A program made the position numbers and the translations under genes. Under the pieces are notes generated by a model that saw nothing but the letters and a program-made list of their open reading frames with translations, was not told where the DNA came from and made no database searches. Below are positions 20,634 to 41,630 of a stretch of 63,295 nucleotides of DNA, in pieces. Within the stretch, counting starts at the first letter, position 1. Each line of letters begins with the position of its first letter. The DNA comes from Bacteroidales bacterium (lineage in GTDB: Bacteria > Bacteroidota > Bacteroidia > Bacteroidales > UBA932), in contig JAKSJP010000014.1 in assembly GCA_024398105.1 (NCBI GenBank), positions 1 to 63,295 of the forward strand, read 5' to 3'.

Positions 20634-20706
20634 ATAAGAGACCTTTAAGAATCAGGGCGACCATTTCCCCAAGTTGATTGGGAACCCGTTCTTAAAGTTC
20701 TCTTAT
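20634..20706. repeat. Structured element A: conserved core with self-complementary arms
   Basis: Left arm 20634-20651 and right arm 20689-20706 are 18 nt each and pair at 17 of 18 positions. The 37-nt core 20652-20688 carries GGGCGACC, TTTCCCCAAGTT, TTGGGA and CCCG, and can fold into an inner hairpin (CCCAA with TTGGG) and an outer GGG/CCC stem. The core is nearly identical to that of element B at 41578-41612, but the arms share no sequence with B. Its right end lies 5 nt from the breakpoint of an XRE-regulator fragment. Confidence 0.75.
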
Positions 20707-20711
20707 ATGTA

Positions 20712-20822
20712 TCAGACGCAGCGTCTGCTCAGACCCTTGTCTAGCCTGCGCTTCCGGCAGTTCTCTGCCAGTGACTTTGCCAGGCGTTCTGGGGTCTTGT
20801 TGAAAATGTCGAAGCTATAATA
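20712..20822 (-). pseudogene. XRE-family regulator N-terminal fragment
   Basis: The minus-strand frame reads DIFNKTPERLAKSLAENCRK, then RRLDKGLSRR, the typical first helices of the HTH regulators that precede hipA-like genes in Bacteroidales. It then terminates after two more codons, right beside element A. There is no start codon in frame (TAA upstream) and the recognition helix is missing. It appears to be a small leftover, cut at the element boundary. Confidence 0.5.
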
Positions 20823-20862
20823 GCATTATTATTTTAAATAACTGAGGTCCCGGATCATATAT

Positions 20863-20897
20863 GAAAAAACTTAAGGCCGAGTAGAACTCGGCCTTAG
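20863..20897 (-). terminator. Strong minus-strand intrinsic terminator without an annotated gene
   Basis: A 10-bp perfect stem (arms TAAGGCCGAG 20872-20881 and CTCGGCCTTA 20887-20896) is followed on the minus strand by AG and six T residues (20864-20869). On the plus strand the stem has no T run, so it serves leftward transcription. No protein gene ends here. Confidence 0.75.
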
Positions 20898-20948
20898 TAA
20901 GATAAAGGTACCACAGCTTGAAGTTATCGCGCTTTTTTGGGTTACCTT
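20863..20948 (-). ncRNA. Candidate small RNA of about 85 nt
   Basis: A minus-strand -7 box TATATTTG (20953-20960) predicts a start near 20948, and the terminator ends near 20863. The 5' part folds back: AAAGGTA (minus strand, 20943-20949) pairs with TACCTTT (20904-20910) around a loop of about 32 nt, followed by the terminator hairpin. The region has no sensible ORF. The -33 region is a poor match, so this could instead be the 3' part of a longer transcript from the promoter at 21250. No known RNA family is recognised. Confidence 0.45.
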
Positions 20949-20961
20949 TTCGCAAATATAA

Positions 20962-21245
20962 TGAAATTCTGCTAAATTATATATTATGCCGATAAACGTT
21001 TAGGTTGTGTAATGGGCTCCAATACAATGAGATAGTCTAATAAATCTCGTAAAAAATACTCCCGTTTATTACACGAAACCTTGCTCCTGCACATATCAGA
21101 CCGTTTTTCTGAAAATAGAAACGTTTACGCTTGAAGAAACGGCTAGTTCTGCTGAACATAGCAGAATAAAAATGAGAAGAAAACGTGAGGGTATTAAAAA
21201 GACTAAACCCGAATGTTTGATTGCTCAGGGACATCCGGGGATTAC
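20962..21245 (-). ncRNA. Possible longer leftward transcript, structured or coding 65 aa
   Basis: A full-match promoter (TTTG-N19-TATATTTG, minus strand, 21250-21280) would start a transcript near 21245. It could form a 5' hairpin (CCCGGATGT with ACATTCGGG), a perfect 7-bp hairpin TTCTGCT/AGCAGAA (21147-21166), a TCAGA/TCTGA hairpin (21096-21112) whose loop CCGTTT can pair with AAACGG (21137-21142), and a long closing stem (21002-21013 with 21068-21081). An alternative reading is a 65-residue ORF from ATG 21234 to 21037, Phe/Ser- and Arg/Lys-rich with no recognised family. It lies divergent to the Abi gene. Confidence 0.35.
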
Positions 21246-21249
21246 GATG

Positions 21250-21280
21250 CAAATATAGTCTTTTATTACAACATAGCAAA
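21250..21280 (-). promoter_or_regulatory. Minus-strand promoter divergent to the Abi gene
   Basis: TTTG (21277-21280), exactly 19 nt, TATATTTG (21250-21257), read leftward. This is among the best promoter matches in the window, yet no protein gene of convincing type lies downstream. Confidence 0.7.
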
Positions 21281-21298
21281 TAGAAAAAGAATTATTGA

Positions 21299-21967
21299 AT
21301 GAAGTACAGTGACTACGAGGCAGCCTTCTCCCCTGCAAGGCTCAATAAATACTTGACCGCATGTAGTGGCAATACCACAAAAGCCCTTACTCTTTATCGT
21401 CATAACGTGAAACTATGTCAGAAGTTTTATGGTGTCTTGAATATCTTTGAAGTCGTACTTAGAAATGCGATTAATGAGCATTACAAAAACCATTTCGGGG
21501 ACATGGATTGGATAAGAACTCAGATACGACCTGGTGGTATGCTTGAGCACCACCCTCATAAATCGAACGTTGAGAAGGCAATCGCTGATCTCTCAGCCGC
21601 CGGAAGGTACACTAACGACCGCCTGGTATCTTCGGTCTCATTTGGTTTTTGGACATATCTATTTACAAAGAAGCCATTCAAGTCAGGTGGACAAAGTTTA
21701 CTTAAAGTCTTTCCTGCTAGGACAACCGGTCTTGGACAGAGAGCAATATATAACGAATTGCAAGACATCAAGAATTTCAGGAACAAGATAGCCCACCATG
21801 AAGCAATCTGTTTTGACTCTATGGGACAGAAAAGCGTGTCCCTTGCCAAGGATAGTTATGCACTCATTTTGAAGTATATAATCTTTCTAGGATTCACTGA
21901 AAACCATTTGTACTATGGGCTGGATGTTCTTCCCGACAGCGTTCTCAATCATATTGACGCTTTATAA
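21299..21967 (+). CDS. Abi-like protein (Abi_2/AbiD-AbiF type, HEPN fold)
   Basis: 222 residues, cytosolic, all-helical by composition. YGVLNIFEVVLRNAINEHY near residue 50 and FRNKIAHHEAIC near residue 160 are the two landmark segments of the Abi_2 family. The second contains R-x4-H (RNKIAH), the HEPN ribonuclease motif. Abi_2 proteins such as lactococcal AbiD/AbiF block phage growth, probably by RNA cleavage. Some family members are associated with a conserved upstream non-coding RNA (recalled, not checked). Length is somewhat below lactococcal AbiF (about 340) but complete for the short form. It lies 19 bp from the divergent promoter at 21250-21280 and before an Rpn-like remnant. Confidence 0.8.
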   Translation: MKYSDYEAAFSPARLNKYLTACSGNTTKALTLYRHNVKLCQKFYGVLNIFEVVLRNAINEHYKNHFGDMDWIRTQIRPGGMLEHHPHKSNVEKAIADLSAAGRYTNDRLVSSVSFGFWTYLFTKKPFKSGGQSLLKVFPARTTGLGQRAIYNELQDIKNFRNKIAHHEAICFDSMGQKSVSLAKDSYALILKYIIFLGFTENHLYYGLDVLPDSVLNHIDAL

Positions 21968-21987
21968 AATACGCAGAAGACATTTTT

Positions 21988-22272
21988 ATGTATCTTTGTG
22001 AACCCCGGGTATCTTCCAACCTCTTTCGGGCTTCGGAGATTGCCCAGTTCGACCAAACCAAGAAACTGATTTACGACACAGAGATGATGACAGAAAGAGA
22101 CTATCAGCACGACATGTACTACTCCCGCGAAGAAGGCAGAGCTGAAGGAAGAGCTGAAGGGCTAGCAGAGGCGAGATCAGAGGTAGCTAGGAACTGTAAG
22201 GCTCTTGGCATACCCGTCGAAGTCATCGCTAAAGCGACAGGCCTGTCGGCTGAAGAAGTGGCTGAACTCTAG
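21988..22272 (+). pseudogene. Rpn/PD-(D/E)XK transposase-like nuclease, C-terminal fragment
   Basis: 94 codons that match only the tail of the Bacteroidales PD-(D/E)XK nuclease family transposases. A short EIAQFDQTKK segment is followed by the characteristic charged GRAEGRAEGLAEARSE repeat and the ending GIPVEVIAKATGLSAEEVAEL-type helix. Intact members are about 280-320 residues, so the nuclease domain is absent. A -7-like TATCTTTG (21991-21998) overlaps the apparent start, which argues that the first codons are not a native N-terminus. A remnant of a mobile or recombination-promoting gene. Confidence 0.6.
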
Positions 22273-22298
22273 CCTGTATGAGATAATTGATAATTTTT

Positions 22299-22334
22299 CG
22301 CCCTACCACCTCGAGTTTTGCAGGTGGTAGGGCG
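22299..22334. terminator. 13-bp hairpin between convergent genes
   Basis: CGCCCTACCACCT (22299-22311) and AGGTGGTAGGGCG (22322-22334) form a perfect 13-bp stem between the nuclease remnant and the ThuA gene. T-rich sequence lies on its left side only (TTTTT, 22294-22298), so terminator polarity is unclear. Confidence 0.5.
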
Positions 22335-22360
22335 TTAAATAATAACCGTAAGGCCGTGCC

Positions 22361-23275
22361 CTACCTCTTCTGCCTATAATCCATCCTGAACGAGGTCTTC
22401 TCGGCGGTAGGGAAGTCTGCAGGGACTTTCTGCTTTACCTTGCCGGTGGCGCACCATTCAGCGGCGCGGAGGATCAGGGTCTGGAAGCCGGCGCACTGCA
22501 TTGCAGGATTATTCTCGAGGGTCTCGCCGGCGTGGCCGAGCATGCAGTGGAAGATCCTGGCCTTGCCGTAGTCTACAGAGAATACGAGAGGCTCCTCGCG
22601 GCCTGAGCCGCGCTTCTCCTTGTATGAGAACGAGGTGTAGAGGAGATCGTCGATCTCGCCTGGACCGCGCATTCTGTCGTAGAGCTCGTCGGTGCCGTGC
22701 ATCCACTGCGCAGGAAGGCCCTTGGTGATCGGGTGCTTGCTGTCCCTGTTGGTGAGGAGATACTCGTGGCGAGGACCGTGTGAACCGCCGATGCCAGGGG
22801 TCATGTCCTTCACGAGGCCGCCGTCCTGCCAGTAGATGTAAGGTCCGTCCTTCTCGTTACGTCCGCCCCAGCCGCCGAGCGCGTTCATCTTGCTGTATTC
22901 AGCCCACTCGCGGAACGAGTTGTCCGCAGCGTGGTAGAAGATGATGCCGCCGCCGTTCTGGGCGTATGCCTCGAAGTCCTTCTTCATCTGATCGCTCCAC
23001 ATGTCTCCGTTGTAGTCAACTATGACAACACCGTACTGGCTGAAGTCAACGTTGAAACCTGACATGTCCTTGCCAGCCTCAGGAGAGACTGCGATATCGA
23101 CGGTGAAGAGGCCGGAGTCTTCAAGCATGATCTTGAAAGCCTGGCTGCTGATCTTCCAGAAATGGTTGTTCTGTCCGGTTACGACGACTGCCTTGATCTG
23201 CTTTTTGGCCGAAACGTCAATGCCTGGGAACAGAAGTCCCAGGCATAGGATGATTGAGAGAAGTCTGAATCTCAT
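22361..23275 (-). CDS. ThuA-like domain secreted protein
   Basis: 304 residues with a Sec signal peptide (MRFRLLSIILCLGLLFPG). The mature part is a single ThuA-like domain of the class I glutamine-amidotransferase-like fold: IKAVVVTGQNNHFW at the start, YGVVIVDYNGDMW, GGGIIFYHAADNSF with the landmark His, ARIFHCMLGHAGE near the end. ThuA proteins are linked to trehalose or other glycan use, but the exact reaction is unsettled. It is the last gene of an operon with the CE1-like esterase (gap 14 bp) and the beta-lactamase-fold hydrolase, suggesting glycan or ester processing in the periplasm. Confidence 0.88.
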   Translation of the reverse strand: MRFRLLSIILCLGLLFPGIDVSAKKQIKAVVVTGQNNHFWKISSQAFKIMLEDSGLFTVDIAVSPEAGKDMSGFNVDFSQYGVVIVDYNGDMWSDQMKKDFEAYAQNGGGIIFYHAADNSFREWAEYSKMNALGGWGGRNEKDGPYIYWQDGGLVKDMTPGIGGSHGPRHEYLLTNRDSKHPITKGLPAQWMHGTDELYDRMRGPGEIDDLLYTSFSYKEKRGSGREEPLVFSVDYGKARIFHCMLGHAGETLENNPAMQCAGFQTLILRAAEWCATGKVKQKVPADFPTAEKTSFRMDYRQKR

Positions 23276-23289
23276 ATGTTATCGTTCTT

Positions 23290-25582
<2,293 letters not shown>

Positions 25583-25605
25583 ATCAGTAAAGTGTCATAT
25601 GTACC

Positions 25606-25637
25606 CAAATATATCGACAAATAATCTGAAATACAAA
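25606..25637 (-). promoter_or_regulatory. Promoter of the hydrolase operon
   Basis: Minus strand: TTTG (25634-25637), 20 nt, TATATTTG (25606-25613), 24 nt before the ATG of the serine hydrolase gene. Confidence 0.65.
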
Positions 25638-25640
25638 CAC

Positions 25641-26834
25641 TTATTCAGATACTGTCTCTATGGTAGTCAGTGTGCTGTCAGGAAAGACTCGATGCATGAC
25701 GCTGTCGAGCTGCATCTCGAGTTCCTTGATCCTGTTCTCAAGCAGGCCCATCTCCGCCTCGGTCCTGTCGAATACGTCCTGGATGAGCGCATCGTCATCG
25801 TTTCCGAAGCTGTGCTCGACTATGTTGAGCTGGTCGTAGGCGATATGGTATTGCTCGGCAGAGGCATATAGCCTCTGCAGTTCCTCGTTGGTGAGGCCTT
25901 CTCCGGCGAAGAAGATGTCGGCGTATCTGTTCTTTCCTGAATGCATCTTGTAGTCGTGGATATAAGACTTTCCGATGATCTTGTTGGCTGTGACGAACTG
26001 GTCGACGTTTCTCTCGAGCTTGCTGTCTTTCGACATCCTGATCATGCTGAATCCGCCGGATATGATCAGGCAGGCACCGATGATTCCCATAGCCCTGGTC
26101 GCCATCCTGTCCGTGCCGGCTTTCTCCTTGTTGACAGGGAAGAGCACGAGTACCATCAGGTACGTGGCGACAGCGATGAAGAAGCAGTTTATCGCGAACA
26201 GTCCGGCCGCGCCGAAGATGAACCTCGGGTTGAGGTGGGCGAGTCCATATCCTACCGTGCAGAGCGGAGGCATGAGGGCTGTGGCGATGGCGACACCCAC
26301 GATTACAGTTCCTTTCTCGTTGTCTTTCCTGAGGCTTTCGAATATGCCTGCCAGACCTCCGACGAATGCAATCAGGACGTCGTAGAACGACGGACTGGTC
26401 CTTGCCACGAGCTCAGTAGGGTTAACGAGCCTCAGAGGCGAGAGGAAGAAGAAGACCGTGGAGACACCAAGGCTGATACCAACCATGATACCGAGATTCT
26501 TCATGGCCTTCCAGAAAAGGGTCCAGTCGTTCGTGCCGATCGCCAGACCCGCGCCGATGATAGGGCCCATGAGCGGGGAGATGAGCATCGCACCGATGAT
26601 GACGGCGGTCGAGTTGACGTTCAGACCGATCGAGGCGATGAGTATCGAGCATGCGAGGACGACTGCGTTCGCACCTTTGATCTCGACATTGGCCTTGATC
26701 CTTTCCGCGGCCTTCTTCGTGTCGGTGTGTTTCGAAGCCCAGTTGCGGGCTTTCTTTACGTTCAAGTCGACTTTCTCCCTGATTTCCGCAGCCAGGACCG
26801 CTATCTTCTCCTTGTCAAATATCGCTTTCTTCAT
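25641..26834 (-). CDS. DUF389 family membrane protein
   Basis: 397 residues. A charged N-terminus is followed by at least six membrane segments. The family's signature stretch is intact: VVLACSILIASIGLNVNSTA, then VIIGAMLISPLMGPIIGAGLA, with a later IATALMPPLCTVGYGLA. The soluble C-terminal part (from about residue 270) ends in a probable coiled coil (ENRIKELEMQLDSVMHRV). The function of DUF389 proteins is unknown. The gene is transcribed divergently from the MATE exporter with a 38-bp gap. Confidence 0.9.
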   Translation of the reverse strand: MKKAIFDKEKIAVLAAEIREKVDLNVKKARNWASKHTDTKKAAERIKANVEIKGANAVVLACSILIASIGLNVNSTAVIIGAMLISPLMGPIIGAGLAIGTNDWTLFWKAMKNLGIMVGISLGVSTVFFFLSPLRLVNPTELVARTSPSFYDVLIAFVGGLAGIFESLRKDNEKGTVIVGVAIATALMPPLCTVGYGLAHLNPRFIFGAAGLFAINCFFIAVATYLMVLVLFPVNKEKAGTDRMATRAMGIIGACLIISGGFSMIRMSKDSKLERNVDQFVTANKIIGKSYIHDYKMHSGKNRYADIFFAGEGLTNEELQRLYASAEQYHIAYDQLNIVEHSFGNDDDALIQDVFDRTEAEMGLLENRIKELEMQLDSVMHRVFPDSTLTTIETVSE

Positions 26835-26857
26835 TAAGTTTATTCTGTCTTATTTGT

Positions 26858-26865
26858 TACATTTG
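26858..26865 (+). promoter_or_regulatory. -7 box of the MATE gene
   Basis: TACATTTG ends 7 nt before the ATG at 26873, giving a very short leader; the -33 region is unclear. Confidence 0.4.
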
Positions 26866-26872
26866 CATAAGC

Positions 26873-28207
26873 ATGCGTGTCGTTAAAGATAACTATAATT
26901 TTCTGACTTCAGCCCCTGTCGGCAAAGTAATTCTGACAATGGCAGTTCCTACCATTATCAGCATGCTCGTCACCAGCATCTACAACATCGTCGACACTTT
27001 CTTCGTCGGAAGGCTCAGCACCCAGGCGACAGCCGCCGTCGGAATCGTATTCCCGATAATGACGATAATCCAGGCCTTCGGCTTCTTCTTCGGCCAGGGA
27101 TCGGGCACCTACATCTCCCGCATGCTCGGTGCAAAGAACAAGGAATACGCCTCCAGGATGGCCGTCACGGCCCTTGTAGGTTCATGTGCCTTCGGTCTTC
27201 TGCTCGCAGTCCTCGGCCTTCTGTTCCTTGATCCGCTTGCCCGGGCACTCGGTGCTACGCCGACCATCCTCCAGCCGACCAGGGAATTCCTCGGCGTCAT
27301 ACTGCTCGGCGCACCGTTCATGACCGGCGCCCTTACGCTCAACAACCAGATACGATTCCAGGGCAATGCGGCCTACTCGATGATAGGAATTCTCAGCGGA
27401 GCCGTCCTTAACGTGCTCATGGTACCTCTGTTCACCTTTACATTCGGTCTCGGGGTCCGCGGCGCGGCCATAGGTACGGTGATCGGCCAGATTGCCAGCT
27501 TCTTCGTGCTTCTTGCCATGTCGTACAAGGGCGACGGTGTCAAGATGAAGCTGAGCGACTTCTCGACTCAGAAGAGCTTCTATGTCGATATCTTCAAGGG
27601 TGGAACGCCTTCGCTTACAAGGCAGGGAATGGCCAGCCTCGCGACCCTGCTGCTGAATGTGGCCGCGGGAGGTTTCGGCGATGCCGCCATCGCGGGAATG
27701 TCCATCGTCAGCAGAATCTCCCTTGTCGTATTCTCCGGCATCATAGGCCTTGGACAGGGCTTCCAGCCTGTCTGCGGCTTCAGCTACGGCGCAGGGCTCT
27801 ATGAGAGGGTCAGGAAGGGTTATTTCTTCTGCCTCAAGGCAGGACTCGGCTTCCTGATAGCCTGCTGTATCCCGGGCTTTGTGTTTGCAGATGTGATAGT
27901 GGATGTGCTTCGCCATGATCCCGAAGTCGTAGCCGTCGGAATGGTCGCCCTTCGCTGGCAGATCGTGACATGGCCGATCGCGGCATTCATCACCTTCAGC
28001 AACATGACCCTCCAGACCAGCGGAAGGTCTCTCCCTGCAAATATACTGGCCGGCTGCCGCAACGGACTGTTCTTCATCCCGCTCATCCTGATACTGCCGC
28101 GCCTTTTCGGACTGACAGGTGTCGAGATATGCCAGACCGTGGCCGACGTGTTCTCCCTGATGGTGGCAGTGCCGCTGATGGTAAGCTATTTCAGAAGCAT
28201 CCGTTGA
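26873..28207 (+). CDS. MATE family efflux transporter
   Basis: 444 residues, inner membrane, about twelve hydrophobic segments in two homologous halves. The first half opens with LTMAVPTIISMLVTSIYNIV-type sequence and the second with GGTPSLTRQGMASLATLLLN. GLGQGFQPVCGFSYGAG and FGFFFGQGSGTYISRMLGA are typical repeats of the NorM/DinF-like group. MATE proteins export cationic drugs or metabolites against Na+ or H+; the substrate cannot be predicted. Full length. Transcribed alone, away from the DUF389 gene. Confidence 0.93.
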   Translation: MRVVKDNYNFLTSAPVGKVILTMAVPTIISMLVTSIYNIVDTFFVGRLSTQATAAVGIVFPIMTIIQAFGFFFGQGSGTYISRMLGAKNKEYASRMAVTALVGSCAFGLLLAVLGLLFLDPLARALGATPTILQPTREFLGVILLGAPFMTGALTLNNQIRFQGNAAYSMIGILSGAVLNVLMVPLFTFTFGLGVRGAAIGTVIGQIASFFVLLAMSYKGDGVKMKLSDFSTQKSFYVDIFKGGTPSLTRQGMASLATLLLNVAAGGFGDAAIAGMSIVSRISLVVFSGIIGLGQGFQPVCGFSYGAGLYERVRKGYFFCLKAGLGFLIACCIPGFVFADVIVDVLRHDPEVVAVGMVALRWQIVTWPIAAFITFSNMTLQTSGRSLPANILAGCRNGLFFIPLILILPRLFGLTGVEICQTVADVFSLMVAVPLMVSYFRSIR

Positions 28208-28294
28208 CGCTGATGTCTGCATCCGCTGACGCTGATGTCAGCCGCCATTCTTGACAAAATGGCTTTTTCTGTTCCGCTTATTGACTAAAAGTGA

Positions 28295-28302
28295 TATATT
28301 TG
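28295..28302 (+). promoter_or_regulatory. -7 box of ppa
   Basis: TATATTTG ends 7 nt before the ppa ATG at 28310, another case of an extremely short leader. Confidence 0.45.
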
Positions 28303-28309
28303 TGTCATT

Positions 28310-28936
28310 ATGGACTTCAACCACATGCATAAAGCACACCCCTGGCATGGAATCGACCTCGGTCCCAACTGCCCGGATGAGATAAGGGCATTCATAGAGA
28401 TTGTCCCTACCGACACTGTAAAATACGAGGTAGACAAGGCATCGGGATATCTCTGTCTCGACCGCCCTCAGAAGTTCTCGAACATCGTACCTAGCCTCTA
28501 TGGCTTCCTCCCTAAGACCTACTGCGGAGAGAAGATGGCAGCCCTTTCAAACGACGTGCTCGCAAGATACGACATCGAAGGCGACGGCGATCCGCTCGAT
28601 ATCTGCGTACTTGCTGAGAAGTCCGTCACCCATGGAGACATCATCGTGAAGTGCATTCCTATCGGCGGCATCCGTCTCCTCGACCACAACCAGGCCGACG
28701 ATAAGATCATCGCTGTCCTCAAGCACGACGCCGTCTATGGCCACTACACCGACATCGACCAGATCCCTAAGGACATCGTCCGCCGTCTCGTCCACTACTT
28801 CACCACCTACAAGGACATCCCTGGCGACCTCCGCAAGAGAATGGAGTTCGTAGGCCTCTATGGTGCTGAAGAGGCGCACAACGTCATCCGCGCCGCCATG
28901 GCCGACTACGACCAGTACATCGAGGAGAAGAAGTAG
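28310..28936 (+). CDS. ppa: Inorganic pyrophosphatase, family I
   Basis: 208 residues, cytosolic, hydrolysing PPi to two phosphates. The family I signature is present as EGDGDPLDICVL, with its metal-binding Asp residues, near residue 95. VPTDTVKYEVDKASGYLCLD provides the other active-site Lys/Glu positions. Full length for the Bacteroidota form. Monocistronic between its own short-leader promoter and a strong terminator. In organisms using PPi-dependent PPDK (ppdK at 0.66-3.4 kb), this enzyme competes for PPi. Confidence 0.94.
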   Translation: MDFNHMHKAHPWHGIDLGPNCPDEIRAFIEIVPTDTVKYEVDKASGYLCLDRPQKFSNIVPSLYGFLPKTYCGEKMAALSNDVLARYDIEGDGDPLDICVLAEKSVTHGDIIVKCIPIGGIRLLDHNQADDKIIAVLKHDAVYGHYTDIDQIPKDIVRRLVHYFTTYKDIPGDLRKRMEFVGLYGAEEAHNVIRAAMADYDQYIEEKK

Positions 28937-28973
28937 GCGTTTGTAAAGAGCTGATAATCAAGCTGTTAAATAA

Positions 28974-29003
28974 AATCCCTTCGGCCGATTGACCGAAGGG
29001 ATT
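28974..29003 (+). terminator. Terminator of ppa
   Basis: AATCCCTTCGG (28974-28984) and CCGAAGGGATT (28993-29003) form an 11-bp stem; the T run is short (TTTCTGTT). Confidence 0.75.
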
Positions 29004-29012
29004 TCTGTTAAA

Positions 29013-34900: not shown

Positions 34901-35250
34901 TGACCATAACCGGTCACGACGACCTGGTCGAGGGTGTTGGCTTCGAATTCGAGTACGATGACGACACCGCTGAGCTTCCCGGCCGTGACGTCGTATTCGA
35001 GCGTCTCCATACCGACTGACGAGACAATGACCGTCTTCACGCCTTCCGGAAGCGGCAGCGAGAAATGGCCGTCGAGGTCTGCGACGGTACCTGCTGAGTT
35101 CTTTTCCTTGCAGATAAGACCAGCCCCGATCACCGGCTGGCCATCGGGGTCAAGGACTGTTCCTTCGAAGCGTCTGCTCTGCGCGAAGGAGTCTAGGCTG
35201 ATGGCGAAGAGTATCGCCATGCAGAGGAATATTCTTAGCTTTCTAATCAA
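31936..35250 (-). CDS. SusC/RagA-like TonB-dependent transporter
   Basis: 1104 residues, outer-membrane beta-barrel. Signal peptide (MIRKLRIFLCMAILFAISLD, cleaved after SFAQ), carboxypeptidase-regulatory-like domain (FEGTVLDPDGQPVIGAGL), then the plug with VVTGYGQTTVKRITGSVG, LWVVDGVPLQ and ITVLKDAAAAAIYGSRAANG, then the barrel to the C-terminal Phe. It imports a ligand bound by the SusD partner, powered by TonB. The start is TTG (35248-35250) and overlaps the pncB stop by 8 bp; ATG 35220 would remove the positive n-region of the signal peptide. The coupling to pncB is unusual. Confidence 0.95.
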   Translation of the reverse strand: MIRKLRIFLCMAILFAISLDSFAQSRRFEGTVLDPDGQPVIGAGLICKEKNSAGTVADLDGHFSLPLPEGVKTVIVSSVGMETLEYDVTAGKLSGVVIVLEFEANTLDQVVVTGYGQTTVKRITGSVGIMDSEKFSSKPLASVSSLMQGELAGVSVTATSGQPGTQSKIRIRGTNNLSGNSEPLWVVDGVPLQNDSPKLSSEQLATGGFDDIFVNGIGGINPNDIESITVLKDAAAAAIYGSRAANGVIVVTTKRGKAGSTKVGYNNNFTWSFRPQRSVNLMNSSEKLDWEQELWDEFSAAGYQKALSDPTAIFPVIGIVGQVRAGVGPFAAMKGDVAAQDAYINSLRGNDTNWYKLLFRNAFSQNHHISLSGGSDKYTYYVAGGLNDDNGMLINNDYQRYNLSANMTMKPVDRVRLDVGLETARQQSKSPDSYVNAFKYAYFANPYEKAYEDDGSYSADNTYFSLGYYNGRGVEQVMPLNGFNILRELGSNFTKTVNTSNTLRGQLDIKIAEPLHFVGLASYSFSNNSTDKIVDKDTYTAFRDRLGNDDKSQTNLYGNISQNRTNRNSYVARGHFAYNQQFADKYTVNALAGAEIRGSDSNTIFTKRYNYDPVTGTSSLPPISGPTDQWLSEVERLNGQYFTENRYASFYGSVDGYIGKTIVLNASFRTDGSSNFGSNKQFNPTWSAGAAWHLGEESWMPQLVSHATLRAAYGFTGDVNTSTTHLLVMQYIQQEYRYDGTGTYKLGQLPSAPNPNLGWEKTSDAKVGLDFGLWKDRLNVNTEAYYRMSSDVVTSSIVPSTVGYYSVYFNSANILNSGIETTVSGKIYQSKDVAVNASVNFAYNYNKVTKYTPSSNGTISSKDRYVEGYPVGAIMSGQYGGIDASNGLYKYRLRDDAKVTSISDLNDPDNYRYYLGTTIAPFTGGFNFSVSYRNLKASLSGVYSFGNKVYDKISSPASYTNALHRGVSTEEVQSEYSDLYSNHLNVTKDRTDRWTETNRTGVKYPRIYDRFNAIYNFAASNPMDYSIIDAIYVKDLSYLRLKSMIISYSLPSRIVKKAKMEGISFNVSLNNMLTITSYDGMDPEVPGATYPTTRSVSAGFSIDF

Positions 35251-36730
35251 GTTTCAGCTGTTCAATCTGTTTGTTGATTCTCTCGAGGATGGAGATCTTC
35301 TCCGCTCTGAGCTCCTCTGAGATGTCGACCTTGTAGTAGTGAGGGTTGATGAGACGTCTCTCAGACTTGCTGAAATGTGCGAGTGTGTCGTCGTAGAATG
35401 CCTTCTTCTCAAGAAGAGTGTGCTTTTCAGCGACGTACTTGCCGTTCTCGATCACAATCTTCTGGAGCGGGCGGTATCTGTATGTCCCGGCCTCGAAAGT
35501 CTTGTATTTGAATCTGTCCTGCTCGTCGTAGACGGTGAAGGTCTCTCCGGCCTCGATCTTCCTGCTTGTCTCGTCGCCCCTGAGGCAGGTTACGTCCGCC
35601 TTGTGGATCTCACCATAGTCCGGATCGTCCTTGATGATACGGTAGGTGATCTGGAAACCAGGGTTGATGAGCTTGATGGTGTCCTCTGAACGCTTGAGCA
35701 CAGGCTCTCCCTTGATCTGCACGAGCTTGTAGACGTTGCCGAAGCAAGGGGCTGCCTTCGAAGTCGCGATAGCGTCGCCTACGCCGTAGCAGTCGATAGC
35801 GGCGCCCTGGCGCTCGAGGTCGGTGATGAGATACTCGTCAAGACCGTTGGTGGCGAAGATCTTGCACTTGGTCATGCCATGCTCGTTGAGGATCTTCCTT
35901 ACCTTCACTGAAAGGTAGGCAAGGTCACCGCTGTCGAGACGGATGCCGTAGCCGCCCTCGTACGAGTCGTCGATCCCGTTCTCGCGGAAAGCCCTGATGG
36001 CGTTGACGATACCGCACTTGAGGGTGTCATATGTGTCGATGAGGAGAATGAGGTTCTCGCCCATGTGGGTCTTGATATAGTCTGAGAATGCCTGGTGCTC
36101 GCCCTCGACGCTGCTGCCGTATGAGGTGATGTAGCTGTGGGCCATGGTACCTGTCGAAGGAACGCCGTTCATCACTCCGGTGAGGATGTTCGATGTGCTT
36201 GCGCAGCCTGCGATGATGGCAGCCTTGGCTCCGTATGTGGCTGCCCATGGACCATGGGCGCGTCTTGAACCGAATTCACTTACAGGGTGGTTGGTAGCCC
36301 TGCATACTCTTGAAGCCTTGGTCGCTACGGCCATCTGGTGGTTCATTATGCAGAGCATCGGTGTCTCGAGCACCTGGGCCTCGATGAGCGGACCCTCGAC
36401 GATTACGATAGGCTGGTTAGGGAACACGATCTCACCCTCGCGCATCGCATAGATGTTGCCGGTGAACTTCATGGTGCTGAGGTACTCGCGGAACTCCTTG
36501 TAGTCGTCTCCTGGAAGGAACTTCTCGAAGAAGCTGCTGTCCATGTTTCCAAGGTTCTGTACCATCTCTATCACCTCCTCGGTGCCGGATACTACAGCCC
36601 AGTTGTTGTTCTCAGGGGCTTTCCTGTAGAAGAGGTTGAAGATAGCAGTCTCGTCCTTCCTGCCTGTCTCGAAGAAAGACTTTCCCATAGTGTACTGGTA
36701 CTTGTCTGAGCAATATGCGTTGTTGAGCAT
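35243..36730 (-). CDS. pncB: Nicotinate phosphoribosyltransferase
   Basis: About 495 residues, cytosolic. It makes nicotinate mononucleotide from nicotinate and PRPP, the entry step of the Preiss-Handler route to NAD. Landmarks include NAYCSDKYQYTMGKSFFETG at the start, HGPWAATYGAKAAI, SYITSYGSSVEGEHQAF and GIRLDSGDLAYLS with the PRPP-site Asp. The frame extends to ATG 36787, but a -7 box (minus strand, 36756-36763) lies inside that extension and ATG 36730 gives the usual N-terminus. It leads an operon with susC, susD and two lipoprotein genes. Confidence 0.93.
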   Translation of the reverse strand: MLNNAYCSDKYQYTMGKSFFETGRKDETAIFNLFYRKAPENNNWAVVSGTEEVIEMVQNLGNMDSSFFEKFLPGDDYKEFREYLSTMKFTGNIYAMREGEIVFPNQPIVIVEGPLIEAQVLETPMLCIMNHQMAVATKASRVCRATNHPVSEFGSRRAHGPWAATYGAKAAIIAGCASTSNILTGVMNGVPSTGTMAHSYITSYGSSVEGEHQAFSDYIKTHMGENLILLIDTYDTLKCGIVNAIRAFRENGIDDSYEGGYGIRLDSGDLAYLSVKVRKILNEHGMTKCKIFATNGLDEYLITDLERQGAAIDCYGVGDAIATSKAAPCFGNVYKLVQIKGEPVLKRSEDTIKLINPGFQITYRIIKDDPDYGEIHKADVTCLRGDETSRKIEAGETFTVYDEQDRFKYKTFEAGTYRYRPLQKIVIENGKYVAEKHTLLEKKAFYDDTLAHFSKSERRLINPHYYKVDISEELRAEKISILERINKQIEQLKLD

Positions 36731-36755
36731 TTTCTGTCTTATATATTTATTACGC

Positions 36756-36763
36756 AAATCTAA
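36756..36763 (-). promoter_or_regulatory. -7 box of the pncB operon
   Basis: TAGATTTG on the minus strand, 25 nt before ATG 36730. It excludes the longer frame start at 36787. Confidence 0.4.
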
Positions 36764-36800
36764 ATATTTTTTTGCGTAAGTTTGCATTAAACATCACCTT

Positions 36801-38297
36801 ATGGAGACACTCAAGTCTATATTCAAGACATATACAGGGGCCGATGCCGATGAAATCAGGCCGCTTGGCGCTTCCGGAAGCAACCGCAGGTACTTCAGGA
36901 TGACTGGTGGCGGGACTTCTCTGATAGGCGTCAAGGGAACCGACCGCGAGGAGAACGCCGCCTTCATTTCCATAGACCGTCATTTCGCGGCAAAGGGCCT
37001 GAACGTCCCCAAAGTCCTGGCAGTCAGCGAGGACGGGATGTACTATATCCAGGAAGACCTTGGCGGCACTGCCCTCTATGACGCAGTCTCCGAAGGCCGT
37101 CACAGCGGCGTCTACAGCCCTGAAGAAAGGGCTCTGCTCTGCCGCACGGTAGCCATGCTCCCGGACATCCAGTATCTCGGAGGTGAGGGACTGGACTATG
37201 GTACCTGCTATCCGGAGCCTGAGCTCAATGGGAGGATGGTGATGTTCGACCTCAACTACTTCAAATATTGCTTCCTCAAGCCTAGCGGACTCGAGTTCAA
37301 CGAGGTCCGTCTCCAGGACGATTTCGACAGGCTTTGCAGCGACCTGCTCAAGGACTTCGGGAATACCTTCATGTACCGCGACTTCCAGGCCCGCAACGTG
37401 ATGCTCAAGGACGGTCAGCCGTATTTCATCGACTTCCAGGGAGGTCGAAGGGGACCGGTGTATTATGACCTTGCGTCGTTCGTGTGGCAGGCCAGGGCTA
37501 AATATCCGGACGACCTGAAGGAAGATATGATCTCAGCCTATCTCAAGGCTCTCCGCAGGTATGAACCAGCTCTCGACGAGGCAGCCTTCCGCAGCAATCT
37601 GAGGCTCTTCGTGCTATTCAGGACGCTTCAGGTTCTCGGCGCCTATGGATTCAGAGGACTTGTCGAGAAGAAGGCCCACTTCCTTGCGAGCATCCCGCCG
37701 GCACTGGACAATCTCCGAAAGCTGATAAGCACTCCTTTCGAGGAGTATCCGTATCTGAATCAGGTACTTGGACGCATGCTCTCACTTGAGAAGTTCAATC
37801 CTCCAGCAGCGTCCGAGGACGGCCTGCTCGAGGTCAAGGTCTACAGCTTCTCGTTCAAGAAAGGCATCCCGGAGGACAACTCCGGCAACGGTGGCGGCTA
37901 TGTCTTCGACTGCCGCGACATAATCAATCCTGCCAACAAGGAGGAACGCGACGGCAAGATCCTGAACCCGGACTATCTCTACTACCGAACCATCAACGGC
38001 AGGGACAAGGACATCATCGACTATATCGAGAACAGGGGCAGGTCGGAGGGATTCGTCGACGACTATATCCCGGTCGCTGACTATCTGGACCATGTCTGCA
38101 GCCTTGTCGACGCCCATGTCGACACCTACGTCAGACGCGGTTTCTCAAGCCTCCAGGTCTGCTTCGGCTGCACCGGGGGCCAGCATCGCAGCGTCTACTG
38201 CGCCCAGCACGTCGCCGAGCATCTTGCCGCAAAATACGGCGGCAGGATCCATGTCAGGCTCATCCACAGGGAACAGGGCATTGAGGAAAACTTATAG
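36801..38297 (+). CDS. AmgK-like sugar kinase fused to RapZ C-terminal domain
   Basis: 498 residues, cytosolic, two parts. Residues 1-330 are an APH-fold kinase: ATP-binding GASGSNRRYFRM near residue 24, catalytic loop TFMYRDFQARNVML near residue 192, metal-site YFIDFQGG near 210. This resembles AmgK, which phosphorylates MurNAc and GlcNAc at C1. Residues 343-498 match the C-terminal domain of RapZ (VKVYSFSFKKGIP, GGYVFDCRDIINP and GCTGGQHRSVYCA), the part that in E. coli senses glucosamine-6-phosphate. The fusion suggests sugar-responsive control of the kinase. The next gene, 18 bp on, is a MurU-like nucleotidyltransferase. Confidence 0.85.
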   Translation: METLKSIFKTYTGADADEIRPLGASGSNRRYFRMTGGGTSLIGVKGTDREENAAFISIDRHFAAKGLNVPKVLAVSEDGMYYIQEDLGGTALYDAVSEGRHSGVYSPEERALLCRTVAMLPDIQYLGGEGLDYGTCYPEPELNGRMVMFDLNYFKYCFLKPSGLEFNEVRLQDDFDRLCSDLLKDFGNTFMYRDFQARNVMLKDGQPYFIDFQGGRRGPVYYDLASFVWQARAKYPDDLKEDMISAYLKALRRYEPALDEAAFRSNLRLFVLFRTLQVLGAYGFRGLVEKKAHFLASIPPALDNLRKLISTPFEEYPYLNQVLGRMLSLEKFNPPAASEDGLLEVKVYSFSFKKGIPEDNSGNGGGYVFDCRDIINPANKEERDGKILNPDYLYYRTINGRDKDIIDYIENRGRSEGFVDDYIPVADYLDHVCSLVDAHVDTYVRRGFSSLQVCFGCTGGQHRSVYCAQHVAEHLAAKYGGRIHVRLIHREQGIEENL

Positions 38298-38315
38298 AAC
38301 ATTCAGGAGCATCCA

Positions 38316-39044
38316 ATGAAGGCAATGATATTCGCTGCGGGACTCGGGACCCGTCTGAAACCCCTTACCGACGAAATGCCGAAGGCGCTCGTTCCGGTGT
38401 GCGGACAGCCGCTTCTGTACCATGTGCTCGAAAAGCTCAAGGCCGCCGGGGTGGACGAGACGATCGTCAACGTCCATCACTTCCCGGACATGATAAGGCA
38501 GTGGATAGAGCACCATGATACCGGAATCAAGGTCAGCATCTCCGACGAGAGGGACTTCCTTCGCGAGACCGGCGGCGGAATAAAGTACGCCGAGCCGCTT
38601 CTCAAAGGCAGCGGCGGTTTCCTGGTCCACAACGTCGACATCCTGTCCAATCTCGACATCGCCTGGCTGATGTCCCAGGTCCATGGTACCTCGCTCTCGA
38701 CGCTTGTCGTCAGCGAACGCAAGACTAGCCGTTATCTGCTTTTCAACGACGAAATGAGGATGGTCGGCTGGACCAATGTGACGACAGGGGAGGTCCGTAC
38801 CCCGTTCAAGGACCTGGACGTCTCGAAATGCCGCAAGCTTGCTTTCTCCGGCATCCACTATATCTCAGACGGGATATTCGATCTGTTCAGAAAGAAAGAA
38901 GTCAGCGACAGGTTCTCCATCACTGACTTCTATATCGATGTCTGCGCCGATTACCCGATAATGGGTGTCGTCCCTGAGGATTTCAGGATGATCGACGTCG
39001 GCAAGCTTGACACTCTCGCCAAGGCTGAGGAATTCCTCGCCTAG
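38316..39044 (+). CDS. MurU-like sugar-1-phosphate nucleotidyltransferase
   Basis: 242 residues, cytosolic. The nucleotide-binding signature is AAGLGTRLKPLTDEMPKALV at residue 6; FLVHNVDIL near residue 107 carries the metal-binding Asp. The size fits MurU, the UTP:MurNAc-1-phosphate uridylyltransferase of the AmgK-MurU cell-wall recycling bypass; other sugars are possible. Placement directly after an AmgK-like kinase gene supports this. It converges on the CPBP protease gene with a 20-bp gap and no visible terminator. Confidence 0.82.
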   Translation: MKAMIFAAGLGTRLKPLTDEMPKALVPVCGQPLLYHVLEKLKAAGVDETIVNVHHFPDMIRQWIEHHDTGIKVSISDERDFLRETGGGIKYAEPLLKGSGGFLVHNVDILSNLDIAWLMSQVHGTSLSTLVVSERKTSRYLLFNDEMRMVGWTNVTTGEVRTPFKDLDVSKCRKLAFSGIHYISDGIFDLFRKKEVSDRFSITDFYIDVCADYPIMGVVPEDFRMIDVGKLDTLAKAEEFLA

Positions 39045-39064
39045 CTGTATTCTCTATTGATAGA

Positions 39065-39973
39065 CTAGATCGCAGGAATCTCGTCGCAGTTGCCCTGAGG
39101 ACTTGCTGTCTCGATCCTTCCTATGTATCTCACGAAGAGGATGATGAAAAGGATCGCGGCGGCAAAGATCGTCCAGTAGGCATATCCTGGCAGAAGATCC
39201 AGCCATGAATCATATTCGCTGAGCGACTCGCTCTGGCCCATGCAGAGGGCGAGGGTGTTGTTGGCGAAATGCATGAGCATGGTAAGCATGATCGAACCTG
39301 TCTTGTAGTAGACATAGCCCATCAGGCAGCCGATCGCGAATGCAGGGATGGCCTGCCATGGATTGAGGTGGATGACTGCGAAGAAAAGCGCTGAAAGCAC
39401 GATTGCAAGATATGGGTTCATGTTCGAGCCGTCTGCCTTCTTGTAGTTGAGCAGACCTCTGAGCACTGTTCCTCTGTAGAGCCATTCCTCAAAGAATGGA
39501 GCGAAGATGCTGACGCTGAGGAAATTGAGGAAGAAGTTGCCTTCTGTCATGCTGTTAAGCGCATCCTCGAGCCACTTCGGCATCTCAGGCATCGCAGAGT
39601 TGACTGCGTCCATGTCGAAAGCCATGCAGACCGTAGCCAGCATGCAGAGGACGGCGGTGAGGACCACTCCTCCCTTGCCGAAATGCTTGCTGTCGATCGC
39701 GTAGCCGGTCTCGAACATCATGTTGCGGTTGCTCACCATCTTGGCATAGATCATCGCAGGGATGAACATCACCGGATATGCGATCAGGGTACCGTAGGTC
39801 TCTACAGCTTCCTTTCCGAGAGGGATGAGGCAGAGCGATACGATGTTGCCCAGAAGTGCGCCGAGAAGGATCCACAGGAGCATTCCGAACATGCCGCTTA
39901 CACCTGGCACATACCATGAGAAGCCGGACAGTACGTCGTAGTTCGAGTTTGAACTTCTTTTAAAGAATGCCAT
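39065..39973 (-). CDS. CPBP-family intramembrane metalloprotease
   Basis: 302 residues with about seven to eight membrane segments. Catalytic motif 1 is FFEEWLYRGTVLRG near residue 163 (EExxxR), motif 2 is FFAVIHLNPWQ near residue 206, and FAIGCLMGYVYYKTGS carries the later Asn/His-type region. CPBP (Rce1-like) proteases cleave membrane peptides or process prenylated or bacteriocin peptides; the substrate here is unknown. It lies 6 bp from the following nucleotidyltransferase gene on the same strand, so cotranscription is likely. Confidence 0.88.
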   Translation of the reverse strand: MAFFKRSSNSNYDVLSGFSWYVPGVSGMFGMLLWILLGALLGNIVSLCLIPLGKEAVETYGTLIAYPVMFIPAMIYAKMVSNRNMMFETGYAIDSKHFGKGGVVLTAVLCMLATVCMAFDMDAVNSAMPEMPKWLEDALNSMTEGNFFLNFLSVSIFAPFFEEWLYRGTVLRGLLNYKKADGSNMNPYLAIVLSALFFAVIHLNPWQAIPAFAIGCLMGYVYYKTGSIMLTMLMHFANNTLALCMGQSESLSEYDSWLDLLPGYAYWTIFAAAILFIILFVRYIGRIETASPQGNCDEIPAI

Positions 39974-39979
39974 ATGGTG

Positions 39980-40915
39980 CTACTTATAAAGTGGGGTTGG
40001 ATATGTGCCGTTGTCAGCAAGTTCCTGGAACTTCGCTACCACTGCAGGACGATCCTCCTTGAAGGTCACGCCGAACCAGCGTGACGGGGTAGAGAGGACC
40101 TCGCACTTGTCGCCGCCCTTCTTGATCATGGTATCTACAGCGTAAGGGATGTAGTACTCCTTCTTGAGCTCCTTTACGTTGACGTCGAGGAATGCCTTGA
40201 AGATCTCGTAGCTCTTGCCGAAGTAGTCAGGGGTGAATCCCCACATGTTCATTGAGCAGAGGGTCTTGCCCTGGAGCTCGATGTGGTTCTCGAGGGTCAC
40301 TGAATTGTCGCCGTAGATGTTGCCGTCGGCCTCTCTTGCGATGTTGTGGTGCTCAGCGATGTCGGTGAGGTGCTGGTCTGCGTCGTATGTGCAGACTCCT
40401 CTTGATACTCCACCTGACTCTGAGAGGGTGTTCTCAAGCTCGAAGCCTACGATGCAGTAGGTTCCCTTGCTGTCCTCGTGTGCCTTGAGCCATTCGCCGA
40501 GGATCCTGAATGAATCCTTGCCATAGTAGTCGTCGCCGTTGATGACAGCGAAAGGCTCCTTGATGACATCCTTTGCCATAAGCACGGCGTGTGCTGTTCC
40601 CCATGGCTTCTGTCTCTCCGGATCCATCTCGTATCCCTCAGGGATCTTGTTGAGCTCCTGTGTGACGAATACGAACTCGAGAGGTGTGCCGTCGACGCAC
40701 TTGACATTCTTGTATTTCTCCTTCACTGCCTGCTCCATCTGCTCCTTGAAATACTCTCTGACGATATAGACTACCTTGCCGAAGCCGGCAGCCACTGCGT
40801 CATAGATAGAGTAGTCGATGATTGTCTCTCCGCTAGGACCGACTCCGTCCATCTGCTTGAGTCCGCCATATCTGCTGCCCATTCCGGCTGCAAGTACCAA
40901 AAGTGTAGGTTTCAT
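39980..40915 (-). CDS. Sugar-phosphate nucleotidyltransferase family protein
   Basis: 311 residues, cytosolic. The N-terminal signature is VLAAGMGSRYGGLKQMDGVG, with INGDDYYGKDSF near residue 120 carrying the metal-binding Asp, and WGTAHAVLMA near residue 105. The overall pattern is that of the NTP-transferase family, UTP--glucose-1-phosphate-like in layout. It is a conserved Bacteroidota protein whose sugar substrate I cannot state. Upstream of CPBP, apparently in one transcript. Confidence 0.82.
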   Translation of the reverse strand: MKPTLLVLAAGMGSRYGGLKQMDGVGPSGETIIDYSIYDAVAAGFGKVVYIVREYFKEQMEQAVKEKYKNVKCVDGTPLEFVFVTQELNKIPEGYEMDPERQKPWGTAHAVLMAKDVIKEPFAVINGDDYYGKDSFRILGEWLKAHEDSKGTYCIVGFELENTLSESGGVSRGVCTYDADQHLTDIAEHHNIAREADGNIYGDNSVTLENHIELQGKTLCSMNMWGFTPDYFGKSYEIFKAFLDVNVKELKKEYYIPYAVDTMIKKGGDKCEVLSTPSRWFGVTFKEDRPAVVAKFQELADNGTYPTPLYK

Positions 40916-40946
40916 AACTATTTGTTGTCTTTAATTTTCTCTTTTC

Positions 40947-40978
40947 TTGGTTGATGACCTCAAAATTAGTTATTTTTG
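40947..40978 (+). promoter_or_regulatory. Promoter of the ftsB-like gene
   Basis: TTG (40947-40949), 21-nt spacer, TATTTTTG (40971-40978), 40 nt before the ATG at 41018. Confidence 0.5.
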
Positions 40979-41017
40979 CTGACATCTTAATCAAGAAATC
41001 TCATAAAGGTCTCATAG

Positions 41018-41320
41018 ATGGGCAAGCTGAAGGAAATATGGAATGGTGAGCACAAGGGCTTTGTGCGTTATGCTGCAGTCGTGACTGTGCTTTTCCTGCT
41101 TTATGTCTGCGTCTTCGGACACGACAGTCTCTGGCGCTGGGTCAAGGCCGGAGCGGAACTCCGTGGCCAGAACCGCCAGATCGAGCTCTATCAGAGAGAG
41201 ATCGACCAGATGGACGCCCAGATCCGCATGCTCTCAAATGACGTCGACTCCCTCGAGGAATTTGCCCGGGAGAACTTTTCTTTTGCTGCCCCGGGCGACG
41301 ACGTCTATATCGACGAATAG
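41018..41320 (+). CDS. FtsB/DivIC-type septum formation initiator
   Basis: 100 residues. One membrane segment (VVTVLFLLYVCVFGHDS, residues 22-38) is followed by a coiled coil (NRQIELYQREIDQMDAQIRM) and a short C-terminal tail ending EEFARENFSFA, the normal FtsB/DivIC layout with periplasmic coiled coil. It should join the divisome with FtsL and FtsQ. Transcribed alone; its 3' side opens into the repeat field at 41327-41681. Confidence 0.88.
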   Translation: MGKLKEIWNGEHKGFVRYAAVVTVLFLLYVCVFGHDSLWRWVKAGAELRGQNRQIELYQREIDQMDAQIRMLSNDVDSLEEFARENFSFAAPGDDVYIDE

Positions 41321-41326
41321 ACGTGC

Positions 41327-41447
41327 GACCTAGGTCACCTGAAACCCCCGAGACCTAGGTCACTGTATTTCTGTAATTGATTGATATATAGTATTATAAG
41401 AAAAATGGGTGACCTAGGTCACGGCACTTTTGTCCGACCTAGGTCAC
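41327..41447. repeat. Four copies of the palindrome GACCTAGGTC
   Basis: GACCTAGGTCAC occurs at 41327-41338, 41352-41363, 41411-41422 and 41436-41447. The first and second pairs are both spaced 25 bp, with 59 bp between the pairs. Each is a perfect palindrome (GACCTAGGTC, one copy GTGACCTAGGTCAC). The intervening bases differ. No gene lies here; the site starts 7 bp after the ftsB-like stop codon. Confidence 0.85.
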
Positions 41448-41498
41448 TTTCTTGGGATTTGCCCTTTTTTGCAGGCAGCATCTTTCTGGTTATCCAGC

Positions 41499-41550
41499 AA
41501 TATCTGGACGTATTCCAAACAATATCTGGACGTATTCCAAACAATATCCG
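41499..41550 (+). repeat. 22-bp tandem repeat
   Basis: Two exact tandem copies (41499-41520 and 41521-41542), beginning AATATCTGGACG, followed by an 8-base partial third copy. Confidence 0.85.
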
Positions 41551-41559
41551 ATCTACATA

Positions 41560-41630
41560 AAAGCAGCAAACTCCTGCAAGGGCGACCTTTTCCCCAAGTT
41601 CTTGGGAGCCCGGCAGGAGTTTGCTGCTTT
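41560..41630. repeat. Structured element B: conserved core with self-complementary arms
   Basis: Left arm 41560-41577 (AAAGCAGCAAACTCCTGC) and right arm 41613-41630 are perfect 18-bp complements. Core 41578-41612 carries the same GGGCGACC, TTTCCCCAAGTT, TTGGGA and CCCG blocks as element A and folds into CCCAAG-TT-CTTGGG inside a GGGC/GCCC stem. The arms are unrelated to those of element A. It lies between the convergent ftsB-like and purB genes, and its right arm is amplified in tandem. Confidence 0.8.

What the first reader, a model, noticed from the sequence alone, without database searches (positions are those of the whole stretch)
20634..41630. Two structured elements with a shared core of about 35 nt and unrelated, self-complementary arms
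Elements A (20634-20706) and B (41560-41630) share an almost identical core (blocks GGGCGACC, TTTCCCCAAGTT, TTGGGA, CCCG; most of 35 positions identical) that folds into an inner hairpin. The 18-bp arms of A and of B have no sequence in common, yet each pair is complementary to itself (17/18 and 18/18). Conserved core plus covarying arms points to selection on structure. Possible explanations are a mobile hairpin DNA element, an integron-like or single-strand recombination site, or an RNA domain. I do not recognise it as a described family.
Basis: seen in the sequence. Interest (0 to 1): 0.75.

Follow-up and report, generated by a model that had tools for sequence, protein, structure and literature searches.

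The report
Mobile DNA hairpins with variable arms
The two hairpins belong to a small family of scattered DNA repeats in a group of gut bacteria; each copy keeps nearly the same loop but has its own pair of matching arms, and comparison of related species suggests that the arms are copied from one another and that the loop can flip, so paired changes here need not mean an RNA with a job.

Summary
A (20634-20706) and B (41560-41630) are two of 20 copies found in this genome; a third, diverged copy lies at 13654-13728. The host is a Candidatus Cryptobacteroides-like Bacteroidales genome. Each copy is a hairpin with a conserved apical core (about 16-38 nt) and its own self-complementary arms (median stems 17, 27 and 15.5 bp for three core types). 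The family is patchy: the two closest relatives found have none, and a strict type I/II core pattern is in 4 of 400 genus genomes. Many own copies lie just after stop codons; in relatives some lie in frame inside atpG and dnaG. Among three sister species, six orthologous pairs (120 base pairs) show 26 two-sided Watson-Crick replacements against 7 one-sided changes, and the loop is inverted in 4 of 6. Arm mismatches show no clear strand bias (21 G.T, 14 A.C). This points to DNA-level arm homogenisation and spacer inversion by template switching rather than selection on an RNA. How new copies arise is not shown. REP and Rickettsia palindromic elements are the nearest known kinds; the REP tags and a linked Y1 transposase were not found. 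New variant of a known kind.

The parts
20634..20706 (+). Element A, type I hairpin: 18-bp arms (17/18 paired) around the core GGGCGACCATTTCCCCAAGTTGATTGGGAACCCG; begins 14 nt after the stop of an HTH_3 gene (20302-20619 +)
41560..41630 (+). Element B, type I hairpin: 18-bp arms (18/18 paired) around the core GGGCGACCTTTTCCCCAAGTTCTTGGGAGCCCG; 57 nt beyond the stop of the adenylosuccinate lyase gene (41688-43049 -)
13654..13728 (+). Third, diverged copy of the family in the window
   Evidence: 33.3 bits, E 1.1e-5; sequence
41613..41681 (+). Three 23-bp direct repeats (GCAGGAGTTTGCTGCTTTGTTAT and variants), the first of which includes the right arm of B
   Evidence: sequence

Best explanation
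A and B are copies of a short (about 70-80 bp) dispersed hairpin DNA repeat of Cryptobacteroides-like Bacteroidales. SHOWN here: many copies per genome with near-identical cores and different self-complementary arms; no copy in the two closest relatives found; presence or absence at orthologous sites among three sister species; copies at gene 3' ends and in frame in protein linkers; two-sided replacements and inverted loops at orthologous sites. INFERRED: once in place, the arms stay complementary because DNA polymerase switches template between them, copying a change in one arm into the other and sometimes inverting the loop; no function of the hairpin is needed for that. INFERRED and weaker: new copies arise by replicative insertion of the hairpin or of its core, often at gene ends where terminator hairpins normally sit, with a factor supplied in trans; a Y1/HUH (RAYT-like) transposase is the obvious candidate but is not demonstrated.
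For: 20 copies in the own genome and 8, 6, 4 in G023, G048, G047; 0 in G088 and G012, the closest relatives found. Cores agree at 0.82, 0.84 and 0.94 (types I, II, III) but arms at 0.40, 0.37 and 0.45 (shuffled 0.27-0.29); pairs with cores at least 97% alike have arm identity of only 0.39, 0.48 and 0.51. Presence and absence at orthologous sites: E1 to E6 and E8 in G023, G047, G048; own sites of B and of the L042, L043, L044 and L049 elements lack it in the relatives read. Six orthologous pairs, 120 base pairs: 82 same, 26 two-sided Watson-Crick changes, 7 one-sided, 5 other; loop inverted in 4 of 6. No clear strand bias in mismatches. In-frame copies in atpG (G047, G048) and dnaG. Template switching is published to homogenise arms and invert spacers (PMC8604942 passages) and to make compensatory stem changes (PMC8794818 abstract and introduction).
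Against: The orthologous pairs are few, were chosen because both copies could be read, and are all of type II; none is from the own genome. The two dnaG copies lie at slightly different distances from the conserved ENRILAPAE motif and may be separate insertions; L058 ends a contig. In the core, the C.A mismatches of A and B on + would be U.G on -, which leans towards a minus-strand RNA. Own copies lean to one orientation at gene ends, which frequent flipping would blur. The mobilising agent is unknown; direct repeats at the feet are at most 3 nt.
Confidence: 0.6

Rival explanations
1. REP-like elements mobilised in trans by a RAYT/Y1 (HUH) transposase that recognises the hairpin loop as single-stranded DNA; arms co-evolve because only well-paired copies stay mobile.
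For: Y1_Tnp genes in 4 of 4 element-bearing genomes tested (4 genes in the own genome) and in 3 of 6 genomes without R1 matches, 2 of those 6 over the Pfam cut-off. The core is the conserved part; inverted and clustered copies occur.
Against: Three of the four own Y1 loci were searched with R1 and hold no copy; they are flanked by other inverted repeats. GTAG near the feet in 4 of 51 copies (control rate 0.14), CGTC in 11 of 51 (control 0.22). Selection for mobility would not act on old copies fixed in atpG or dnaG, yet these too show two-sided changes.
Confidence: 0.2
2. The core alone is the inserted unit and enters pre-existing terminator or stem-loop hairpins, whose stems become the arms.
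For: Pairs with identical cores and unrelated arms (L036/L037, L171/L172). At E4 G047 has a bare hairpin TGCCCGGGCTTTGTCCCGGGCA matching the outer arms of the G023 element; at E5 two sisters have an A-tract hairpin at the site. The gene end of L043 has ordinary T-tract terminators in G012 and G088. Long-stem hairpins with small loops occur elsewhere in the own sequence. In G033 the net extra length in the interrupted gene is roughly that of the 45-nt core.
Against: E4 is equally explained by loss of the inner part in G047, and G048 has nothing there; the empty G048 site at E3 has no hairpin. The G033 linker is hypervariable. Own arms share a consensus, which unrelated terminator stems would not.
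Confidence: 0.3
3. A cis-acting RNA or terminator element: a 3' UTR hairpin kept paired by selection at each site.
For: 14 of 21 own copies lie within 75 nt, 8 of 21 within 12-19 nt, after the stop codon of a gene on the minus strand of the element (mechanical ORF calls); strong folding; core C.A mismatches of A and B would be U.G on the minus strand.
Against: No clear wobble bias in the arms; no strand-specific T-tract, T fraction 0.40 and 0.41 on the two strands for type I; copies inside coding regions; orthologous genes lack it; no Rfam match above gathering except tRNAs.
Confidence: 0.1

Closest known systems
Rickettsia palindromic elements (RPE), as described in the MITE review PMC10969869 (passages)
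   Same: Dispersed palindromes that also insert in frame into protein-coding genes and leave an open frame.
   Different: [quoted passage not shown] here the unit is about 70-80 bp, only the loop is conserved, arms differ between copies, and no sequence relation to RPEs was tested.
REP / REPIN repeats with RAYT (TnpA-REP) transposases (PMC3733652 passages; PMC8266576, PMC2817692, PMC3116915 seen only in a listing)
   Same: Short extragenic palindromes in many copies, often in clusters or inverted pairs.
   Different: No GTAG or CGTC enrichment at the feet, arms not conserved in sequence, no copy at three own Y1 loci, about 20 copies per genome, occurrence inside genes.
Quasipalindromes and inverted repeats changed by polymerase template switching (PMC8604942 passages; PMC8794818 abstract and introduction; coding palindromes of Nematomorpha, PMC6649704 abstract)
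   Same: Arms made or kept perfectly complementary, spacer inversion, palindromes within coding genes.
   Different: Those are changes at individual sites; here one conserved loop is dispersed over a genome with many arm pairs.

Membership tests
REP / REPIN (RAYT-associated) | GTAG or CGTC tetranucleotide at one end of the palindrome (PMC3733652) | tested here: not met
   GTAG 4 of 51 (control rate 0.14), CGTC 11 of 51 (control 0.22)
REP / REPIN (RAYT-associated) | Copies flanking a RAYT gene | tested here: not met
   No R1 match at E<=0.01 in 20 Y1 loci, 3 of the 4 own ones included; two weak ones (E 0.05, 0.23) in L081 and L080
REP / REPIN (RAYT-associated) | Dispersed extragenic palindrome in many copies | tested here: met
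   20 copies in the own genome, 17 pattern matches in G090
Rickettsia palindromic elements | In-frame insertion in protein-coding genes | tested here: met
   atpG in G047 and G048, dnaG in G047 and G048, SDH_alpha gene in G033
Rickettsia palindromic elements | Sequence relation to an RPE family and a conserved encoded peptide | not tested
   No RPE sequence was fetched; here the arm-encoded residues differ between copies
MITE | Conserved terminal inverted repeats and target-site duplication | tested here: not met
   Arms vary between copies; no direct repeat at the feet in 46 of 51, 2-3 nt in 5 of 51
Template-switch-maintained inverted repeat | Arm homogenisation (two-sided changes) at orthologous sites | tested here: met
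   26 two-sided, 7 one-sided, 5 other, 82 unchanged of 120 base pairs in six pairs
Template-switch-maintained inverted repeat | Spacer inversion | tested here: met
   4 of 6 pairs inverted, with caveats for dnaG and L058
Structured RNA family of Rfam | Match at the family's gathering score | tested here: not met
   Only tRNAs in the window; sub-threshold hairpin matches in nine loci
Integron attC | Conserved boxes at the foot, cassette array with integrase | tested here: inconclusive
   Loop conserved and feet variable by reading, copies scattered over contigs; integrases not searched
Intrinsic terminator | Hairpin followed by a T-tract on the transcribed strand | tested here: not met
   T fraction in the 8 nt after the hairpin 0.40 and 0.41 on the two strands, 17 type I copies; single copies with TTTT exist

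The most novel reading that the evidence does not exclude
A 'loop-only' selfish element: the 16-38 nt loop sequence is the sole inherited unit; it reaches new sites without a dedicated transposase, takes its arms from local DNA by template switching, then keeps them perfect and flips its loop by the same process.
Probability: 0.2. Interest if true: 0.82.

Novelty: new variant of a known kind. Interest (0 to 1): 0.62.

Why it matters
Compensatory base-pair changes are taken as the strongest sign of a functional RNA. Here a dispersed hairpin with strong compensation, found even inside atpG and dnaG, looks better explained by DNA copying between its own arms, so it gives many natural replicates for measuring template switching and spacer inversion in bacteria, and a warning for covariation-based RNA discovery. 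It also adds a bacterial group outside Rickettsia in which palindromes enter essential proteins in frame.

Tried and rejected
Known RNA: Rfam at gathering score in the window and at relaxed threshold on nine loci gave tRNAs and sub-threshold hairpin matches only. RAYT as neighbour: not borne out. A hairpin with CCCAAGTTTT beside Y1 genes in L080 and L081 was a lead, but the matches are weak (E 0.23 and 0.05), the two loci look alike and the 8-mer is expected about twice by chance in those loci (own estimate), so I dropped it. An early idea that arms are exactly 18 bp was dropped: stems often continue past a bulge and type II stems are longer (median 27). Terminator function: no strand-specific T-tract. 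Phage carriage: two core patterns gave 0 viral contigs each and the A region 0 phage records. The G033 in-gene insertion could not be measured exactly because the linker is hypervariable. One search had two arm boundaries wrong in one pair and is replaced; one search had a stem-length fault and is replaced.

Rows dropped: two of 53 pattern rows were removed (a chance match in L131, a half element in L009). The remaining 51 are the copies caught by three core patterns, not every known copy: for type I 17 of the 21 own copies. The type III pairwise figure uses 15 of 20 rows: 4 rows of G033 and G020 were left out on purpose and one G090 row (L143) by mistake. The stop-codon distances rest on mechanical ORF calls. 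E7 gave only 69-71% matches and was not read.
Full report
WHAT IS THERE. A (20634-20706) and B (41560-41630) are as described: 18-bp arms, 17/18 and 18/18 paired, around a shared core. The core pattern occurs only there in the window (0.00 expected), and both fold well below shuffles on either strand. A pattern with up to 2 mismatches gives five places in the own genome (G000, 2.43 Mb in 48 contigs), with 1 match of the reversed control pattern. A covariance model from those five (R1) finds 20 copies at E<=0.001 in the own genome, 8, 6 and 4 in G023, G048 and G047, and one each in G020, G030 and G033: 7 of 61 genus genomes. That run used strict filters and missed a G007 match found later. A third window copy lies at 13654-13728.

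ANATOMY. Own (type I) copies read arm - AAGGGCGACC(A)TTTTCCCAAGTTC(C)TTGGGAGCCCG - arm'. Copies in G023, G047 and G048 (type II) are nearly perfect palindromes closed by CCCTTTTCCCAAGTTTTATGGG. G090, G033 and G020 hold a third core, about GGCGANCATTTACCCGGATAGGGCGCGAAGCGCAGNGAGNC. G007 has a looser relative. Stem medians are 17, 27 and 15.5 bp for the three types (n = 17, 14, 20; ranges 13-19, 21-45, 3-23).

ARMS AGAINST CORE. Cores agree between copies at 0.82, 0.84 and 0.94 (types I, II, III), left arms at 0.40, 0.37 and 0.45, shuffled arms at 0.27-0.29. Pairs whose cores are at least 97% alike have arm identity of 0.39 (7 pairs), 0.48 (10) and 0.51 (34). The correlation of the two is -0.05, 0.37 and 0.32. 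So arms are weakly related but have been rewritten or exchanged much more than cores. They are not changing at extreme speed: between G023 and G047, with 94% flank identity, the 30-bp arms of E1 are identical and one loop base differs.

DNA OR RNA. In 51 copies the inner 22 arm columns give 943 Watson-Crick pairs, 21 G.T, 14 A.C (G.U on the other strand), 33 other mismatches and 111 gaps. An RNA stem should favour the wobbles of one strand; here the two kinds are similar. Against this, the C.A mismatches in the cores of A and B on + would be U.G on -, a weak pointer to the minus strand. T fraction in the 8 nt after the hairpin is 0.40 and 0.41 on the two strands for type I.

WHERE THEY SIT. 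By mechanical ORF calls, 14 of 21 own copies end within 75 nt, and 8 of 21 within 12-19 nt, of the stop codon of a gene on the minus strand of the element. In relatives of the own genome the sites read lack the element. For B, nine loci were read: in five (G234, G182, G016, G026, G060) the adenylosuccinate lyase stop is close to the convergent DivIC-like gene, where the own genome has a 367-bp gap; four have other neighbours and no element in the stretch read. The GMP synthase gene of L043 ends in ordinary T-tract terminators in G012 and G088; L044 has no element in G012 or G088, L042 and L049 none in G012. G088 and G012, the closest relatives by the lyase gene among 300 genus genomes (84 and 82%), have no R1 match, nor have 28 of the 29 others searched with them.

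INSIDE GENES. In G048 and G047 an element lies in frame in atpG, in the same linker, and another in the linker of dnaG; in G033 one lies in an SDH_alpha gene. Of 80 atpG loci from named genomes, 71 could be read through the linker by a motif and 9 not; four of those read (L183, L184, L186, L187) hold the type II core, each with different arms, 30 bp in L187. The linker is hypervariable: 67-112 residues in the span measured.

ORTHOLOGOUS SITES. Flanks of eight type II copies were searched in G023, G047 and G048 and seven sites read. E1: in G023 and G047, not in G048. E2: in G023; G047 has a different palindrome there and G048 no element in the stretch read. E3: in G023 and G047; G048 is empty, read close to a contig end. 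E4: full in G023, a bare small hairpin in G047, and in G048 overlapping stop and start codons. E5: in G048; G023 and G047 have an A-tract hairpin there. E6: in G047 and G048. E8: in G023; the G047 contig ends within the site; none in the G048 stretch. E7 gave only 69-71% matches and was not read. L055/L061 is another shared site, where G047 keeps one half of a G023 element. [quoted passage not shown] The loop is inverted relative to the flanks in E3, E6, dnaG and L058/L059 and not in E1 and atpG. For E3 the loop resemblance is modest (10 against 6 matches). Caveats: the dnaG copies may be separate insertions; L058 ends a contig; the outer arm of E3 needs a gap; pairs were chosen because both copies could be read.

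READING. Two-sided changes with inverted spacers are what template switching between inverted-repeat arms produces (PMC8604942, passages; PMC8794818, abstract and introduction). It needs no function of the hairpin and explains perfect pairing inside atpG and dnaG. It does not explain how copies reach new sites. Near-identical cores at unrelated sites and presence or absence among sisters say that they do, without target-site duplications (none in 46 of 51, 2-3 nt in 5), conserved ends or a linked gene. Y1 transposase genes are in the four element-bearing genomes tested and in 3 of 6 others, but three own Y1 loci hold no copy and carry other inverted repeats.

DISTRIBUTION AND LITERATURE. The strict type I/II pattern is in 4 of 400 genus genomes and in 1 of 119 family genomes, the own one; it is narrower than R1. 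The type III pattern is in 0 of 393 order genomes, a sample that did not hold G090, G033 or G020. No viral contig matched either pattern used. In the listings I saw no paper on such an element; that is a narrow basis.

VERDICT. A real, dispersed and apparently undescribed hairpin family; the covariation of its arms is most likely made by DNA copying and not by selection on an RNA. A new variant of the small palindromic repeats known from REPs and RPEs.

Noticed in passing
window 41327-41445; L036, L038, L046, L049: A second dispersed repeat: the palindrome GACCTAGGTC occurs 4 times in the window (0.09 expected) and 15 times in 202 kb of own sequence fetched (window included), often in pairs 25 bp apart; 0 in 169 kb of loci from six relatives.
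   Followed up: partly
window 41498-41545: Direct repeat of about 22 bp (ATATCTGGACGTATTCCAAACA) beside element B, in an intergenic region that is short in relatives.
   Followed up: no
window 12855-12930 and 18626-18701: Two tRNA-Val genes with the same anticodon and the same Rfam score in one window, and the start of a third tRNA-like match at the window end.
   Followed up: no
L190 (atpG linker): A different hairpin, 21-bp arms around a loop of about 80 nt without this core, in the same atpG linker: the linker seems to take up several kinds of palindrome.
   Followed up: no
L078, L080, L081, L085 (Y1 transposase loci): Y1_Tnp genes of this genus are flanked by their own hairpin-rich inverted repeats, unlike the elements reported here.
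   Followed up: partly
L070 3704-3911 (G020): Two elements with the same core in a direct tandem repeat of about 127 bp, a third 1.2 kb away.
   Followed up: no
L053 (G048:C42), L058 (G023:C31), L052, L267, L048, L050: Copies often lie at or near contig ends, and L053 continues into an inverted copy of its flank, which may be an assembly fold-back; further copies may be missing from the assemblies.
   Followed up: no
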